64,000 nt of DNA from NCBI RefSeq assembly GCF_026341855.1, contig NZ_JAPENW010000001.1:1302001-1366000 (forward strand), read 5' to 3'. The notes under the pieces were generated by a model. That model worked only from the letters and a program-made list of their open reading frames with translations, was not told the origin of the DNA and made no database searches. Origin of the DNA: Streptomyces sp. NBC_00568 (GTDB taxonomy: Bacteria > Actinomycetota > Actinomycetes > Streptomycetales > Streptomycetaceae). The position numbers and the translations under genes were made by a program. Below are positions 35,686-41,056 of this stretch, piece by piece; position 1 is the stretch's first letter, and each line of letters starts with the position of its first letter.

Positions 35686-36276
35686 TCAGCCCAGCGACGC
35701 GTCGAGGAACTCTCTTACGTGGGAGAGGACTTGGTCGCGGCCGGTGCCCCGGAGGCCGATCGCCACATGGATGGAGAAGCCGTCGAGCAGGGCGCGCAGC
35801 CGGGCGCCGAAGCGGTCCGGGTCGACGGCGCGGAACTCGCCGCGCGAGACGCCCTCGGCCAGCAGTGCGACGAGATCCCGGTGCCAGGCGCCCTCGATGG
35901 CGACCTGCCGTTCCCGGGCGTCGTCGTCCGCGTTCTGCGAGCGGTTCCAGACCTCCAGCCAGAGCGTCCAGTGCGGGTCGCGGTGGCCGTCGGGGACGTA
36001 CAGGTCGACGTAGGCGTCGAGCCGCTCGCGGGCCGTTCCGCGCGCGGCGAGCAGCCGGCCGCGCTCGGCGCCGAGGCGGCCCTCGCTCCACTCCAGGGTG
36101 CGCAGCAGCAGCTCGTCCTTGGAGCGGAAGTAGTAGAGGAGATGGCCGCTGCTCATGCCGACCTCACGGCCGAGTGCCGCCATGGTGAGCTTCTCCAGAC
36201 CGCGCTCGGCGATCATCTCCATGGCGACGGCGAGGACCTCCTCGCGCGGTGGCGCGTTCTTCCGCGCACCGGCCAT
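35686..36276 (-). CDS. TetR-family regulator of the urease-like operon
   Basis: 196-aa TetR protein: N-terminal helix-turn-helix about 10-58 (AMEMIAERGLEKLTMAALGREVGMSSGHLLYYF) and a C-terminal ligand domain (about 65-190). It is the last gene of the operon ureAB-ureC-aguA-tetR, 15 bases after aguA, and probably binds the palindrome at 39772-39790 in the operon's promoter. Ligand unknown; an agmatine, carbamoylputrescine or ureide signal would fit the neighbours. Confidence 0.88.
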   Translation of the reverse strand: MAGARKNAPPREEVLAVAMEMIAERGLEKLTMAALGREVGMSSGHLLYYFRSKDELLLRTLEWSEGRLGAERGRLLAARGTARERLDAYVDLYVPDGHRDPHWTLWLEVWNRSQNADDDARERQVAIEGAWHRDLVALLAEGVSRGEFRAVDPDRFGARLRALLDGFSIHVAIGLRGTGRDQVLSHVREFLDASLG

Positions 36277-36291
36277 CCGTGACTCCCGTTT

Positions 36292-37329
36292 TCAGACCTT
36301 CGGCTGCTGCTGGGTGATGCAGTGGATGCCACCGCCGCCCGCGAAGATCGTACGTGCGTCCACCAGCGTCACGGTCCGCTCGGGAAAGAGCCGGCGGAAG
36401 ATGCCCGCCGCGATCTCGTCGCGCGGATCGTCGAAGCCGCACAGGACGACGCCGCCGTTGCAGAGGTAGTGGTTGATGTAGGAGTAGTCGGCCCAGTGGC
36501 CGTCGGCCTCCAGGGCCGTCGGGGCCGGGACCTCGACGACCTCGATGCGGCGGCCGCGGGCGTCGGTCTGCGCCTTGAGCAGCCCGATGACCTCTCGGCC
36601 GACCTCGTGGTCGGGGTGCGCCGGGTCCTGCTGGGAGTGCGCGACGATCACGCCGGGCCGGGCGAACGCGGCGACGATGTCGACATGGCCGAGCGTGCCG
36701 AATCCGTACGGGGGGTAGTCGCCGGTGAGGCCGCGCGGCAGCCAGATCGCCTTGCTGGTGCCGAGCTGGGCGTGGATCTCCGTCTCGACCTGCTCGCGGG
36801 TCCAGCCGGGGTTGCGCTCCGGGCCGAGCTGCACGGTCTCGGTGAGCAGCACGGTGCCCTCGCCGTCGACGTGGATCGCGCCGCCCTCGTTGACCAGCCG
36901 TGAGGCGTACGTCTTCGCCCCTGCGAGGTCCGCGACCTCGCGGCCGATCTTCGCGTCGTGCTCCCAGCGGGCCCAGGCCTGGGCACCCCAGCCGTTGAAC
37001 GTCCAGTCAACGGCGGCGAGTTGGCCCCGTCCGTCGGTCAGGAAGGTGGGACCGATGTCGCGCATCCAGGCGTCGTCGAGTGCCCGCTCGACGGTGTCGA
37101 TGCCGGGGCCGAGGAGTTCGGCGGCTGGCGCGGACTGGCCCGGGCCGCACACCACGGTGACCGGTTCGAAGCGGCGGACCGCGCGGGCCACCGCCGCCCA
37201 GGCCGCGCGCGACTCGGCGAGGTCCTCCGGGTTGTCGAAGGTGGGGTTGGGGCCCGGCCACGCCATCCAGGTGCGCTCGTGCGGGGTCCATTCGGCCGGC
37301 ATGCGGAAGCCGTCGGAGGCAGCAGACAT
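36292..37329 (-). CDS. aguA: Agmatine deiminase
   Basis: Porphyromonas-type peptidyl-arginine deiminase/agmatine deiminase fold (345 aa), converting agmatine to N-carbamoylputrescine and ammonia in the cytoplasm. Catalytic features: WMRDIGPTF (Asp about 90), the His in GTLGHVDIVAAFARP (about 212), and the nucleophile Cys337 in GGGGIHCITQQQP. WAPGPNPTF-type N-terminus (HERTWMAWPGPNP) is family-typical. It follows ureC by 25 bases. No N-carbamoylputrescine amidohydrolase (AguB, nitrilase family) is present next to it. Confidence 0.93.
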   Translation of the reverse strand: MSAASDGFRMPAEWTPHERTWMAWPGPNPTFDNPEDLAESRAAWAAVARAVRRFEPVTVVCGPGQSAPAAELLGPGIDTVERALDDAWMRDIGPTFLTDGRGQLAAVDWTFNGWGAQAWARWEHDAKIGREVADLAGAKTYASRLVNEGGAIHVDGEGTVLLTETVQLGPERNPGWTREQVETEIHAQLGTSKAIWLPRGLTGDYPPYGFGTLGHVDIVAAFARPGVIVAHSQQDPAHPDHEVGREVIGLLKAQTDARGRRIEVVEVPAPTALEADGHWADYSYINHYLCNGGVVLCGFDDPRDEIAAGIFRRLFPERTVTLVDARTIFAGGGGIHCITQQQPKV

Positions 37330-37354
37330 GGGTGATCCTTACGGGCTGTGTCGA

Positions 37355-39031
37355 TTACAAGAAGTACAGGCGGTTGAGGGAGACCGAGTCGGCCGGCCCG
37401 GAGCGCAGCGGGTCGCCGTCGAGCGTGACCAGGCCGGTGCGCTGGTCCACGTCGACCGCTCCGGTACGGGAGTTGAGGCGCAGGTCGGCGGGGCCGATGC
37501 CGCGGGTGCCGCGAACCGCCACACGGCGGCGGCGCGTCGGCATGGTGTCGTTGCCCTGGTCGAGCGCCGCCTGTGCCACGAAGGCCACCGAGATCTCGGC
37601 GGGGGTCGCGCCGTGCGCCCCGAACTGCGGCCCGAGGACCAGAGGTTCGCAGGTGTCGGTGGCGGCGTTCGGGTCGCCGACGACGCCGTACGCCGGGAAG
37701 CCGGACTTCAGCACGAGCTGCGGTTTGGCGCCGAAGTACTCGGGGCGCCACAGCACGATGTCGGCGAGCTTGCCGGTCTCGATGGAGCCGACCTCGTGGG
37801 CGAGGCCGTGGGCGATGGCCGGGTTGATGGTCAGCTTGGCCATGTAGCGCAGCACGCGTTCGTTGTCGTGGTCCTCGGGCGCGCCGAACTGGGCCTTCAT
37901 CTTCCCGGCCATGGCGAAGGTGCGGCGCACCGTCTCGCCGGCGCGGCCCATGCCCTGCGCGTCCGAGGAGGTGATGCCGATCGCGCCCAGGTCGTGCAGC
38001 ACGTCCTCGGCGCCCATGGTCCCGGCGCGGATACGGTCGCGGGCCATGGCGGCGTCGCCGGGCAGATCGGTCTTCAGGTCGTGGACGGAGACGATCATGC
38101 CGTAGTGCTCGGCGACCGCGTCCCGGCCGAAGGGCAGGGTCGGGTTGGTGGACGAGCCGATGACGTTCGGGACGCCCGCCATCTTCAGGACGTTGGGCAC
38201 GTGTCCGCCGCCGCAGCCCTCGATGTGGAAGGCGTGGATGGTGCGGCCTTCGAGCACCCTGAGCGTGTCCTCGACGGACAGGCATTCGTTCAACCCGTCG
38301 CTGTGCAGGGCGACTTGGACGTCGTGCTCCTCGGCGACGCGCAGCGCGGTGTCGAGTGCGCGGGTGTGGGCGCCCATGTCCTCGTGGACCTTGAAGCCGC
38401 TCGCGCCGCCCTCGGCGAGCGCCTCGATCAGCGGTGCGCCGTCGGAGGACGAACCCCGGCCCAGGAAGCCGATGTTGACCGGCCAGGCGTCGAAGGCGCC
38501 GAAGGCGTGCCGCAGCGCCCAGGGCGAGTTGACGCCGACGCCCCACACCGGCCCGAACTCCTGGCCGATGACCGTCGTCACGCCGGAGGCCAGTGAGGCC
38601 TCCATGATGCGCGGCGAGAGCAGGTGGACGTGGGTGTCGACGGCTCCGGCGGTGGCGATGAGGCCCTCGCCGGAGACGATGGACGTGCCGGTGCCGACCA
38701 CGACGTCGACGCCGTCGAGGGTGTCGGGGTTGCCGGCCCGCCCGATCGAGCAGATCCGGCCCTCGCGGATGCCGATGGACACCTTGCGGATGCCCTGGAC
38801 GGCGTCGATCACCACCACGTTGCTGATGACGACGTCGCAGGTGTCCCGGACGGCGGCGGCCTTGAGGTGCAGTCCGTCGCGGGCGGTCTTGCCGAATCCG
38901 GCGAGGAACTCGTCGCCGGGGAGCTGGGCGTCGGACTCGACACGGATGGTCAGCCCGGAGTCGCCGAGCCGGAGCCGGTCGCCGGCCCGGGGGCCGTGGG
39001 TGGCGGCGTAGGCGTGCGGGTCGACGCTCAT
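37355..39031 (-). CDS. ureC: Atypical urease alpha (UreC-like) metallohydrolase
   Basis: 558-aa amidohydrolase-superfamily protein of the urease alpha type. All nickel/metal ligands align with urease: His134 and His136 (DTHVHL), carbamylatable Lys214 (SGFKVHEDMG), His243 (ALHSDGLNE), His269 (HIEGCGGGH), Asp357 (SSDAQGMG). But the active-site flap of true urease (MVCHHL) reads IVSVHDL here, so the flap Cys is Ser315 and the catalytic His is Val316. The C-terminal KPQLVLKSGFPAY is also altered from the urease consensus. Together with the neighbouring agmatine deiminase this suggests another ureido/carbamoyl substrate; a classical urease role is less likely. It overlaps ureAB by 4 bases. No ureEFGD genes are in the window. 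Confidence 0.85.
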   Translation of the reverse strand: MSVDPHAYAATHGPRAGDRLRLGDSGLTIRVESDAQLPGDEFLAGFGKTARDGLHLKAAAVRDTCDVVISNVVVIDAVQGIRKVSIGIREGRICSIGRAGNPDTLDGVDVVVGTGTSIVSGEGLIATAGAVDTHVHLLSPRIMEASLASGVTTVIGQEFGPVWGVGVNSPWALRHAFGAFDAWPVNIGFLGRGSSSDGAPLIEALAEGGASGFKVHEDMGAHTRALDTALRVAEEHDVQVALHSDGLNECLSVEDTLRVLEGRTIHAFHIEGCGGGHVPNVLKMAGVPNVIGSSTNPTLPFGRDAVAEHYGMIVSVHDLKTDLPGDAAMARDRIRAGTMGAEDVLHDLGAIGITSSDAQGMGRAGETVRRTFAMAGKMKAQFGAPEDHDNERVLRYMAKLTINPAIAHGLAHEVGSIETGKLADIVLWRPEYFGAKPQLVLKSGFPAYGVVGDPNAATDTCEPLVLGPQFGAHGATPAEISVAFVAQAALDQGNDTMPTRRRRVAVRGTRGIGPADLRLNSRTGAVDVDQRTGLVTLDGDPLRSGPADSVSLNRLYFL

Positions 39032-39744
39032 CGGCCGGCTCCTTCGGCTCCGGGGTGTCCGTCGGCGCCTTCGGCTCCGAGGTATCCGCAGGCGGCGGCC
39101 CTGCGCAGGGCCTCTTCCTTGGCTCCTGGCGCGTCCAGGGGTCCGTCGACCAGACCGGCGAAGCCGATCGCGATCCGTTCGCCCCCGATCGGCACGAATC
39201 CGACCTCGGCGCTCTCGCCGGGACCGAAGCGGACGGAGGACCCCGCGGGCACGGCGAGCCGCATCCCGTAGGCGGCGGCACGGTCGAAGTCGAGCCGCGG
39301 GTTGGCCTCGAAGAAGTGGAAGTGGGAGGTGACGGAGACGGGCACGGCCGCGGTGTTGGTGACCGTCAGCCGCAGAACCGCGGCGGGCTCGGTGTGCGCG
39401 GGCGCCGGCAGCAGCGCGCCCGGGGCGCGGTCGCCGAGTCCGCCGCCGATGGGGCCGGAGACGACGGCGAGCCGGGAGCCGTCGTCGAAGACGGCCTCGA
39501 CGTGCACCTCGGTGACGACGTCCGCGACGCCGGGCAGGACGTCGTCGGGGCCCAGGACGGACCGGGCGGCCTCGATGGCCTCCGCCAGCCGCCTGCCGTC
39601 GCGGGCGGCCTCGCAGACCGTGTCCGCGATCAGGGCCGTGGCCTCCGGCACGTTGAGCCGCAATCCGCGCGCCTTGCGGGCCCGGGCCAGCTCGGCGGCC
39701 GAGAACAGCAGCAGCCGGTCACGCTCCGTGGGGGTCAGTCTCAC
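39028..39744 (-). CDS. Fused urease gamma-beta (UreA-UreB-like) subunit
   Basis: 238-aa fusion: UreA-like gamma domain about 1-100 (MRLTPTERDRLLLFSAAELARARKARGLRLNVPEA; GVADVVTEVHVEAVFDDGSRLAVV) and UreB-like beta domain about 100-225 (LTVTNTAAVPVSVTSHFHFFEANPRLDFDRAAAYGMRL; GGERIAIGFAGLV). The fusion and length match Helicobacter-type UreA. The C-terminus has a GAEGADGHPGAEGAG extension. It is the first gene of the ureAB-ureC-aguA-tetR operon and overlaps ureC (ATGA). ATG-equivalent start at 39744; a palindrome just upstream is a likely TetR operator. Confidence 0.88.
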   Translation of the reverse strand: MRLTPTERDRLLLFSAAELARARKARGLRLNVPEATALIADTVCEAARDGRRLAEAIEAARSVLGPDDVLPGVADVVTEVHVEAVFDDGSRLAVVSGPIGGGLGDRAPGALLPAPAHTEPAAVLRLTVTNTAAVPVSVTSHFHFFEANPRLDFDRAAAYGMRLAVPAGSSVRFGPGESAEVGFVPIGGERIAIGFAGLVDGPLDAPGAKEEALRRAAACGYLGAEGADGHPGAEGAGR

Positions 39745-39771: not shown

Positions 39772-39790
39772 TTTAGAGCATCACTCTAAA
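39772..39790. promoter_or_regulatory. Palindromic operator upstream of ureAB and permease
   Basis: Perfect inverted repeat TTTAGAG-CATCA-CTCTAAA, 27 bases before the ureAB start and on the shared divergent promoter (39745-39909). A second half-site GCTCTAA lies near 39851. Symmetry and position suit a TetR dimer, probably the product of 35686-36276. Confidence 0.6.
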
Positions 39791-39909
39791 CGCCGGATTC
39801 ATGGATGGGAAACATTGACGGGCAACCGTTGGAGACGCCACATTGAACGTCGCTCTAACTCCTGGTGCTTCCCGCACCATTCCCAGGCGGCCGTCAAAGA
39901 AGACCAGCC

Positions 39910-41056
39910 ATGCCGATCGAACAGCGCGGAGTCGACACCATCCCCGACGGGGAACGCACCAGCGGACCGCGCAACCTGGTGTCGATCCTGCTCGGCTCCA
40001 ACCTGTGCCTCGGAGTGATCATCTTCGGCTGGCTGCCGCCCTCCTTCGGACTCGACTGGTGGTCCTCGGTCAGCGCGATCGTGGCAGGCACGGTCGTCGG
40101 CACCGCGCTCACCGCGCCGCTGGCCCTGGTGTCACTGCGGACGGGCACGAACCTCTCCACCTCCTCCGGCGCGCAGTTCGGCGTACGGGGACGGCTGGCC
40201 GGCTCGGTCGTCGGCCTGCTTCTCGCGCTCGGCTACACCGCGCTGACCGTGTGGATCGGCGGCGACGTGATGGTGAGCGTCCTCGGCCGCCTCTTCGGTC
40301 TGGAGGCGAGCGGACTGTCGTACGCCGTCGTGTACGCACTGCTGGCCGCCGCCACCGTCGCGGGCGCCGTCTACGGCTACCGCGTGCTGCTCGCCATGTC
40401 CCGCGCCCTCGCGGTCGGCATGACGGCCCTGCTGGTGGTCGGCGTGATCGCGTACGCCCCGCACTTCACCACCGCGGCGCTCCCGGAGGCAGGCGGCCAT
40501 CTGCCTCGACCTCGACGCGATCCTGCCCCGCGCCTCGCGCGCCCGCGCCACCTGCGCGGTCGCCGTCGTCGCCATGCTCTGCGTCTTCGTCGGCCTCCCC
40601 CGAGCTCTCGGCTTCGCTCGAACAGGGAGGTACTGAGGTACCCCCACCGCCTGGAACGCCCAGTCCGCGATGACGTCCTTCGTCCTGCTGCTGACCGCGA
40701 TCGGCACCCCGTGGGCGGTCATCACCCTGATCGGCTTCGTCCGCTGCCGCGGCGTCTACGACCCCGACGCCCTCCAGGTCTTCAACCGCCGCTCCCGCGG
40801 CGGCGTCTACTGGTACCGGGCGGGCTGGAACCTCCGGGCCACGGCGGCCTGGGCCCTGGGCGCCCTCGTCGGCCTCCTGGCCGTCTCGCTGCCGTCGTAC
40901 GAGGGGCCGCTGCTGTCCCTGACGGGCGGGGTGGACTGCAGTTTCATCCTGTCCGGGCGGGTCGGAGGCATCGTGTATCTGGCGCTCTCACCCGAGCGGG
41001 TGTCCCACCGGGTCGAGACCGGGCAGGAACCCGCTCACGCCGAAAGCGGGGTCTGA
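39910..41056 (+). pseudogene. Disrupted NCS1-family nucleobase/ureide permease
   Basis: Remains of a purine-cytosine/allantoin-type permease divergent from the urease-like operon. The first about 196 residues read well in one frame from ATG 39910 (NLVSILLGSNLCLGVIIFGW; ...YAPHFTTAALPEAGG) and then break at about 40497. The coding sense resumes in another frame (LDLDAILPRASRARA) and, after a TGA at 40634 inside a palindromic repeat, continues as WNAQSAMTSFVLLLTAIGTPWAVITLIGF to the stop at 41056. Compared with the family, roughly 100 residues are missing at the break. A sequencing error alone cannot explain the deletion plus the repeat insertion. Confidence 0.8.
40594..40645. repeat. Palindromic interspersed repeat inside the permease gene
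   Basis: About 50-bp element with nested symmetry: CCTCCC (40594-40599) with GGGAGG (40625-40630), CGAGC (40601-40605) with GCTCG (40616-40620), and GGTAC/GTACC at 40629-40642. From memory, very similar palindromes with the core CTCGGCTTCGCTCGA are scattered between genes in many Streptomyces genomes. Here it sits inside a coding region and supplies an in-frame stop. Confidence 0.65.

What the first reader, a model, noticed from the sequence alone, without database searches (positions are those of the whole stretch)
35686..39744. Urease-like operon fused to polyamine metabolism: possible ureido (carbamoyl-amine) hydrolase
Seen: ureAB-like, ureC-like, agmatine deiminase and TetR genes are contiguous on one strand with gaps of -4, 25 and 15 bases. 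Known: agmatine deiminase makes N-carbamoylputrescine, normally cleaved by the nitrilase AguB, absent here. Inference: the UreC-like enzyme hydrolyses N-carbamoylputrescine (or another ureide) to the amine, CO2 and ammonia, replacing AguB, and not classical urea hydrolysis. The divergent (broken) NCS1 permease could have imported a ureide.
Basis: partly seen in the sequence, partly recalled or inferred. Interest (0 to 1): 0.85.

Follow-up and report, generated by a model that had tools for sequence, protein, structure and literature searches.

The report
Urease relative paired with guanidine deiminase
A soil actinobacterium carries a urease-like enzyme whose reaction centre is kept but whose substrate pocket is changed, encoded in one operon with a deiminase that should make substituted ureas, so it probably splits those rather than urea; many relatives live without the usual urease helper genes.

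Summary
In detail: ureAB-ureC-deiminase-tetR on the minus strand, 39744-35686, beside a broken NCS1 permease. The genome, probably a Streptomyces, has a separate canonical urease. This UreC (UreC*) belongs to one clade that keeps all metal ligands and the flap histidine, but has a rewritten urea-binding loop, four residues shorter in 116 of 116 aligned members, and a changed flap. Of 31 genomes with UreC*, 23 have neither UreD nor UreF, exactly those with no second UreC match; of 30 control genomes with other UreC, 29 have UreD, and the exception has an altered loop itself. UreG is in the stretch fetched around UreC in 42 of 42 loci with the GGG loop and 0 of 126 without; a PF04371 deiminase, Amidohydro_3 protein or polyamine-type transporter lies within 6 kb in 0 of 42 and 120 of 126. 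Best reading: an accessory-free urease-family hydrolase of N-substituted ureas, fed here by the deiminase. No activity is shown.

The parts
39028..39744 (-). UreAB: fused urease gamma/beta-like subunit, 238 aa, GTG start
   Evidence: ORF; NF009671 319.5 bits, cut-off 243; best solved chain 1e9y_A, a fused urease subunit
37355..39031 (-). UreC*: urease alpha-like subunit, 558 aa; metal ligands kept, urea-binding loop rewritten and shorter, flap changed
   Evidence: (TIGR01792 622.1 bits, cut-off 680)
36292..37329 (-). PF04371 deiminase, 345 aa; catalytic Cys/His/Asp kept, agmatine-recognition features missing
35686..36276 (-). TetR-family regulator, BetI-type C-terminal domain
   Evidence: found downstream on the same strand in most Streptomyces loci (77 loci with the tetR used)
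39773..39789 (.). 17-bp palindrome TTAGAG-N5-CTCTAA between ureAB and the divergent permease; predicted operator of the TetR protein
   Evidence: <=1 mismatch within 300 bp upstream of ureAB in 71 of 77 loci with the tetR, against 17 of 770 random windows of the same loci
39865..41056 (+). divergent NCS1-family permease, broken here (330 bp lost inside and change of frame); uninterrupted ORFs in some relatives

Best explanation
UreAB-UreC* is an accessory-free member of the urease family that hydrolyses an N-substituted urea (R-NH-CO-NH2) to the amine, CO2 and ammonia. In this operon the PF04371 deiminase makes that ureide from a guanidino compound, releasing one ammonia, and UreC* releases the rest, so the pair strips a guanidino group in two steps. 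The TetR protein represses the operon through the palindrome upstream of ureAB. Shown here: gene order and its conservation, kept catalytic residues, changed pocket motifs, distribution without maturation genes, partner genes. Inferred: the reaction, the metal, the order of steps and the regulation. Which guanidino compound is used in this strain is unknown; agmatine is unlikely.
For: (1) In 116 of 116 UreC* aligned the HxH, K-x-HED, two further His and Asp motifs stay and the flap His is kept, while GGG becomes GQE-like (Q in 116 of 116), the loop loses four residues (116 of 116), EGAGGGH becomes EGCGGGH (116 of 116), the flap Cys is replaced in 113 of 116 and SDSQAMGR typically becomes SDAQGMGR. 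A review puts urea-binding backbone contacts at Ala170 and Ala366 and the moving flap at Cys322/His323 (PMC7433671, passages; numbers anchored). (2) UreD 8 of 31 and UreF 8 of 31 genomes with UreC*, the same 8, which are those with more than one UreC match; UreD 29 of 30 in the control. (3) UreG in the fetched stretch: 42 of 42 GGG-loop, 0 of 126 other loci. (4) Deiminase, Amidohydro_3 or Pot-type transporter within 6 kb: 120 of 126 against 0 of 42; clustered at 80% identity, 13 of 16 against 0 of 16. (5) Other altered-loop lineages repeat this: type B with a deiminase 448 bp downstream, type C with Pot-like genes directly behind in 3 of 5 loci, type E with Amidohydro_3 directly behind. (6) UreC* is one clade, SH-aLRT 98, in a quick tree of 68 rows. 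(7) Relatives at 67% identity lie in an NRPS cluster on three annotated plasmids, with the same neighbours in a fourth; that urea is not the substrate there is inference.
Against: No activity, metal or substrate is demonstrated. Four UreC* loci (L097, L098, L100, L108) and two type-C loci (L215, L217) have none of the partner genes within 6 kb of the fetched stretch, and G569 (L097) is not among the deiminase matches. In three loci (L104, L105, L118) the nearby deiminase is on the other strand, in two of them with other genes between. Deiminases also occur without UreC* (for example f85 genomes at 60-62% identity). Absent accessory genes do not by themselves exclude urea: B. subtilis and H. 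mustelae UreA2B2 are recalled examples of active ureases without accessory genes of their own. The urea contacts of Ala170 and Ala366 are by backbone, so side-chain change alone does not prove loss of urea binding; type D keeps GGG, the VCHH flap and UreD although its loop is three residues shorter, so loop length alone is not the marker. The structure model failed (mean pLDDT 34).
Confidence: 0.62

Rival explanations
1. One reading: the deiminase is an agmatine deiminase and UreC* is an N-carbamoylputrescine hydrolase that replaces AguB.
For: Adjacency; polyamine-type PotABCD-like genes within 6 kb of UreC* in f91 (L101-L103), f98 (L107, L113) and f101 (L111, L112) and of type C in f15; agmatine deiminases of 518-552 bits lie within about 2.1 kb of UreC* in f93 and f100; no protein over the AguB cut-off in this genome.
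Against: The window deiminase scores 306 (cut-off 381.8), lacks the Asp220 equivalent and has a shorter gate loop; agmatinase-family protein and AguB-like proteins elsewhere in the genome; the Pot-like binding proteins are below the PotD/PotF cut-offs.
Confidence: 0.17
2. An ordinary second urease that hydrolyses urea and is matured in trans by the UreDFG of the canonical operon.
For: All metal ligands kept; this genome has UreD and UreF; the S. coelicolor genes SCO5525-5526 are listed as ureABC, urea-utilizing (PMC3293853, passages).
Against: 23 of 31 genomes with UreC* have no UreD and no UreF; pocket motifs differ throughout the group; UreG near 0 of 126 altered-loop loci.
Confidence: 0.08
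3. An accessory-independent urease of urea with another metal (such as iron), working on urea released by the deiminase from free guanidine.
For: Accessory-free distribution; H. mustelae UreA2B2 as recalled precedent.
Against: Changed urea-binding loop; the Amidohydro_3, Pot-type and NRPS contexts are not explained.
Confidence: 0.1

Closest known systems
Canonical nickel urease (UreABC with UreD(E)FG)
   Same: Subunits, metal ligands, flap His; 47% identity to the same genome's own urease
   Different: Urea-binding loop rewritten and four residues shorter, flap Cys replaced in 113 of 116; UreG in the fetched stretch of 0 of 126 altered-loop loci against 42 of 42 GGG-loop loci; found in 23 genomes without UreD and UreF
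S. coelicolor ure(AB)C (SCO5525-5526, with SCO5527)
   Same: Cluster of only ure(AB)C (PMC2492869, passages); SCO5527 is listed as a homologue of an agmatine-pathway gene (PMC3293853, passages)
   Different: In those passages the genes are treated as urease and the pathway homologues as scattered; identity with the window genes was not computed here
AguA-AguB and AguA-AguY pathways
   Same: PF04371 deiminase beside a hydrolase that would split the ureide; AguY was found by the same reasoning (PMC12283126, passages)
   Different: The hydrolase is a nitrilase or amidase there and a urease-family protein here; the window deiminase fails the agmatine-deiminase cut-off
Helicobacter mustelae UreA2B2 iron urease (recalled; a chain named 'Urease subunit beta 2', 3qga, is among the matches)
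   Same: Urease-family enzyme, recalled as having no accessory genes of its own
   Different: Recalled as acting on urea; its loop motifs were not compared here

Membership tests
Canonical urease (EC 3.5.1.5) | Dinuclear metal ligands and the lysine that is carbamylated | tested here: met
   HVH, K-x-HED, His, His, Asp kept in 116 of 116
Canonical urease (EC 3.5.1.5) | Urea-binding loop with GGG...Ala170 and flap VCHH | tested here: not met
Canonical urease (EC 3.5.1.5) | NCBIfam equivalog TIGR01792 cut-off | tested here: not met
   622.1 against 680; the wider subfamily NF009686 is met (733.4 against 354)
Canonical urease (EC 3.5.1.5) | Dependence on UreD/F/G | tested here: not met
   By distribution only: 23 of 31 genomes without UreD and UreF; UreG near 0 of 126 altered-loop loci
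Canonical urease (EC 3.5.1.5) | Hydrolysis of urea with nickel | not testable with these tools
   needs an assay
Agmatine deiminase (AguA) | PF04371 family with catalytic Cys/His/Asp | tested here: met
   PF04371 363.9 bits; GGGGIHC, GHVD kept
Agmatine deiminase (AguA) | TIGR03380 equivalog cut-off | tested here: not met
   306 against 381.8; L104, L105, L118 score 518, 552, 543
Agmatine deiminase (AguA) | Asp220 and long gate loop with Arg301 (MtAIH numbers) | tested here: not met
   alignments
N-carbamoylputrescine amidohydrolase (function) | Hydrolysis of N-carbamoylputrescine | not testable with these tools
   needs an assay

The most novel reading that the evidence does not exclude
The urease family has a large accessory-free branch, made of several altered-loop lineages, that hydrolyses N-substituted ureas instead of urea: a ureide hydrolase used to strip guanidino groups together with deiminases or Amidohydro_3 enzymes, to use imported polyamine-like compounds, and, on plasmids, to tailor a nonribosomal peptide.
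Probability: 0.5. Interest if true: 0.85.

Novelty: new variant of a known kind. Interest (0 to 1): 0.72.

Why it matters
Urease is taken to act on urea with nickel put in by dedicated helpers. If this branch splits substituted ureas without those helpers, many genes now named 'urease subunit alpha' in actinobacteria (as three on plasmids are) are misnamed, ureolysis predicted from genomes is overcounted, a further route from guanidino compounds to ammonia exists besides AguB, AguY and transcarbamylase, and the pocket changes give a direct test of what makes urease specific for urea.

Tried and rejected
A structure prediction of UreC* with 11 sequences gave mean pLDDT 34 and was not used. NCBIfam and PDB searches gave no function for the Amidohydro_3 partner (no NCBIfam family for the three scanned; two uncharacterised hydrolases in the PDB). 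My label 'OppPerm' was wrong for f91, f98 and f101: those permeases belong to a Pot-type transporter; Opp-type parts were found in L092, L144, L160 and L175. My first regex missed UreG; one search replaces it. My gene caller failed on the low-GC loci L111 and L112, which were redone. Considered and set aside: loss of Ala170 itself (the alignment puts a Val there and the gap just behind it), so only the loop is claimed to be rewritten and shorter.

Literature searches. None of the listings showed me a paper on a urease-family ureide hydrolase or on this gene pair; only openly licensed PMC papers are held and most searches listed the best 20 only, so absence in print is not shown. Papers seen as passages only: PMC3293853, PMC4991794, PMC2492869, PMC9397018, PMC9956245, PMC12283126, PMC6447857, PMC5489568, PMC7547064, PMC7433671; no paper was read whole.
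Full report
What is there. On the minus strand of the window four genes run from 39744 to 35686: a fused urease gamma/beta-like subunit (UreAB), a urease alpha-like subunit (here UreC*), a PF04371 deiminase and a TetR regulator, with spacings of -4, 25 and 15 bases. A divergent NCS1 permease is broken. The genome is 7.9 Mb in 4 contigs; the nearest named relatives of its UreC* are Streptomyces, from which I infer the genus. It has a second, canonical UreC, 47% identical, with UreF and UreD close behind it.

Conservation. In 394 genomes of the class, full-length UreC matches fall into two groups: 53-100% identity (UreC*) and 50% or less (the listing was cut at its low end). Of the 40 genomes of the same genus, 28 have UreC*; in 27 of them a deiminase of at least 74% identity is the next gene, and in the 28th (G602) another deiminase is. 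Two of the 12 others have such a deiminase, both at a contig end; further PF04371 genes of lower identity occur too. The 80 named loci, kept by the tool as the best of 580, show UreAB-UreC*-deiminase in most Streptomyces and in some Kitasatospora, Streptacidiphilus and Thermoactinospora, with exceptions such as Nonomuraea (Amidohydro_3 in place of the deiminase) and Kineosporia (deiminase about 4 kb away).

Active site. The alignment has 116 UreC* and 24 other UreC (16 canonical, and types B, C and D with 1, 5 and 2). In 116 of 116 UreC* the metal-ligand motifs and the flap His stay, the loop is four residues shorter and the second G of GGG is Q; the flap Cys is Val in 90, Ala in 13, Ser in 8, Thr in 2 and still Cys in 3. 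Counting from the first His as 137 puts Lys, flap Cys, flap His and Asp of this genome's canonical urease at 220, 322, 323 and 363, the numbers used in a urease review (PMC7433671, passages), so the changed loop is the one with Ala170. That review gives Ala170 and Ala366 as backbone contacts of urea and places Cys322 and His323 on the flap. I infer a changed, probably wider pocket; this was not modelled, because the structure prediction failed.

Maturation genes. Of 58 UreC* genomes I gave 31 to the searches: all 30 outside Streptomyces and 1 of 28 Streptomyces (this one). Eight have UreD and UreF; 23 have neither; the eight are those for which one search counted more than one UreC. Of the other 109 genomes with a UreC I gave 30: 29 have UreD, and the exception, G547, has an altered-loop UreC with an Amidohydro_3 gene right behind it. 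In 25 further picks from the phylum (G547 again among them) UreD is absent from G208 (type B), from the eight f15 genomes (type C in the five whose loop I read; three of those five are 84-86% complete) and from G547, and present in 14 of the other 15; the miss, G259, is in about 370 contigs.

Neighbours. In 168 loci I asked for a PF04371 deiminase, an Amidohydro_3 protein or a Pot-type transporter within 6 kb. By loop motif 42 have [GA]GG-x-GP and 126 do not. Without it: 120 of 126 have a partner (118 UreC* by motif: 114, of which deiminase 97, Amidohydro_3 18, Pot 9; L144 1 of 1; type B 1 of 1; type C 3 of 5; type E 1 of 1). With it: 0 of 42. UreG in the fetched stretch: 0 of 126 and 42 of 42. 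The 42 were picked from coordinates listed. The transporter near UreC* in f91, f98 and f101 is of the spermidine/putrescine kind: the three ATPases scanned pass the PotA subfamily cut-off, while the permeases and binding proteins scanned have Pot families as best match but below equivalog cut-offs. UreC* is one clade with SH-aLRT 98 (quick tree of 68 rows, plasmid copies not included).

The deiminase. Catalytic residues are kept, but at the place of Asp220, which binds the amine of agmatine in the Medicago enzyme (PMC6447857, passages), it has no acidic residue, and the gate loop is some 15 residues shorter. It scores 306 against 381.8 for agmatine deiminase; the deiminases near UreC* in L104, L105 and L118 score 518, 552 and 543 and keep these features. 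So agmatine is plausible in those lineages and unlikely here. Five loci (L092, L094, L144, L160, L175) have two to four deiminases; some begin with what I read by eye as Tat or lipoprotein signals, and the four of these loci whose neighbours were scanned have Opp-type transporter parts.

Regulation. The palindrome TTAGAG-N5-CTCTAA is present with at most one mismatch upstream of ureAB in 71 of 77 loci that have the tetR, mostly 30-60 bases before it; 17 of 770 random windows of the same loci have it, some of which may overlap the real site. That the TetR protein binds it is inference.

Conclusion. Two facts point away from urea (changed pocket, distribution without maturation genes) and one towards ureides (partners that would make or import compounds with guanidino, ureido or amine groups). 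A hydrolase of N-substituted ureas fits all three. The Streptomyces ure(AB)C cluster is known as such (PMC2492869, PMC5489568, passages) and is read there as urease.

Noticed in passing
L264, L265, L266, L267 (plasmids of Embleya sp. NBC_00888, Streptomyces sp. NBC_00637, S. anulatus NBC_01523, Kitasatospora sp. NBC_01519): UreAB-UreC* relatives (67% identity to the window) between a condensation-domain protein, an APH-like phosphotransferase and a 528-aa protein (no Pfam match; by eye a radical-SAM-like Cys motif) on one side and, on the other, a protein annotated as 2OG-Fe(II) oxygenase in one record only (no Pfam match). NRPS genes are annotated in three records; the Kitasatospora record has no annotation but the same neighbours by tblastn.
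   Followed up: partly
L111:2498-15942 and L112:1696-17899 (unnamed small-genome actinobacteria, family f101): One-strand array which on L112 holds a FmdA-like protein, diol dehydratase subunits and reactivase, Amidohydro_3, UreAB, UreC*, a C45-family hydrolase, a DAO-like oxidoreductase and a PotABCD-like transporter; L111 has similar gene sizes but was not scanned.
   Followed up: partly
L092, L093, L094, L144, L160, L175: Clusters with two to four PF04371 deiminases around UreC*, some apparently secreted, with oligopeptide-type transporter parts.
   Followed up: partly
L218 (G547) and L268 (plasmid of Streptomyces sp. NBC_00841): A further altered-loop UreC type (GMGIGGVWDVGANPAY) with an Amidohydro_3 gene right downstream and, in G547, no UreD match in the genome.
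   Followed up: partly
L213-L217 (family f15, another class of the phylum): Altered-loop type C UreC (AGFEEP or similar in place of the loop) without UreD, in three of five loci followed by Pot-like genes.
   Followed up: partly
window 39865-41056: NCS1 permease broken in this strain, uninterrupted ORF in L127 and some other relatives; if it imports the substrate, this strain must use another route.
   Followed up: partly
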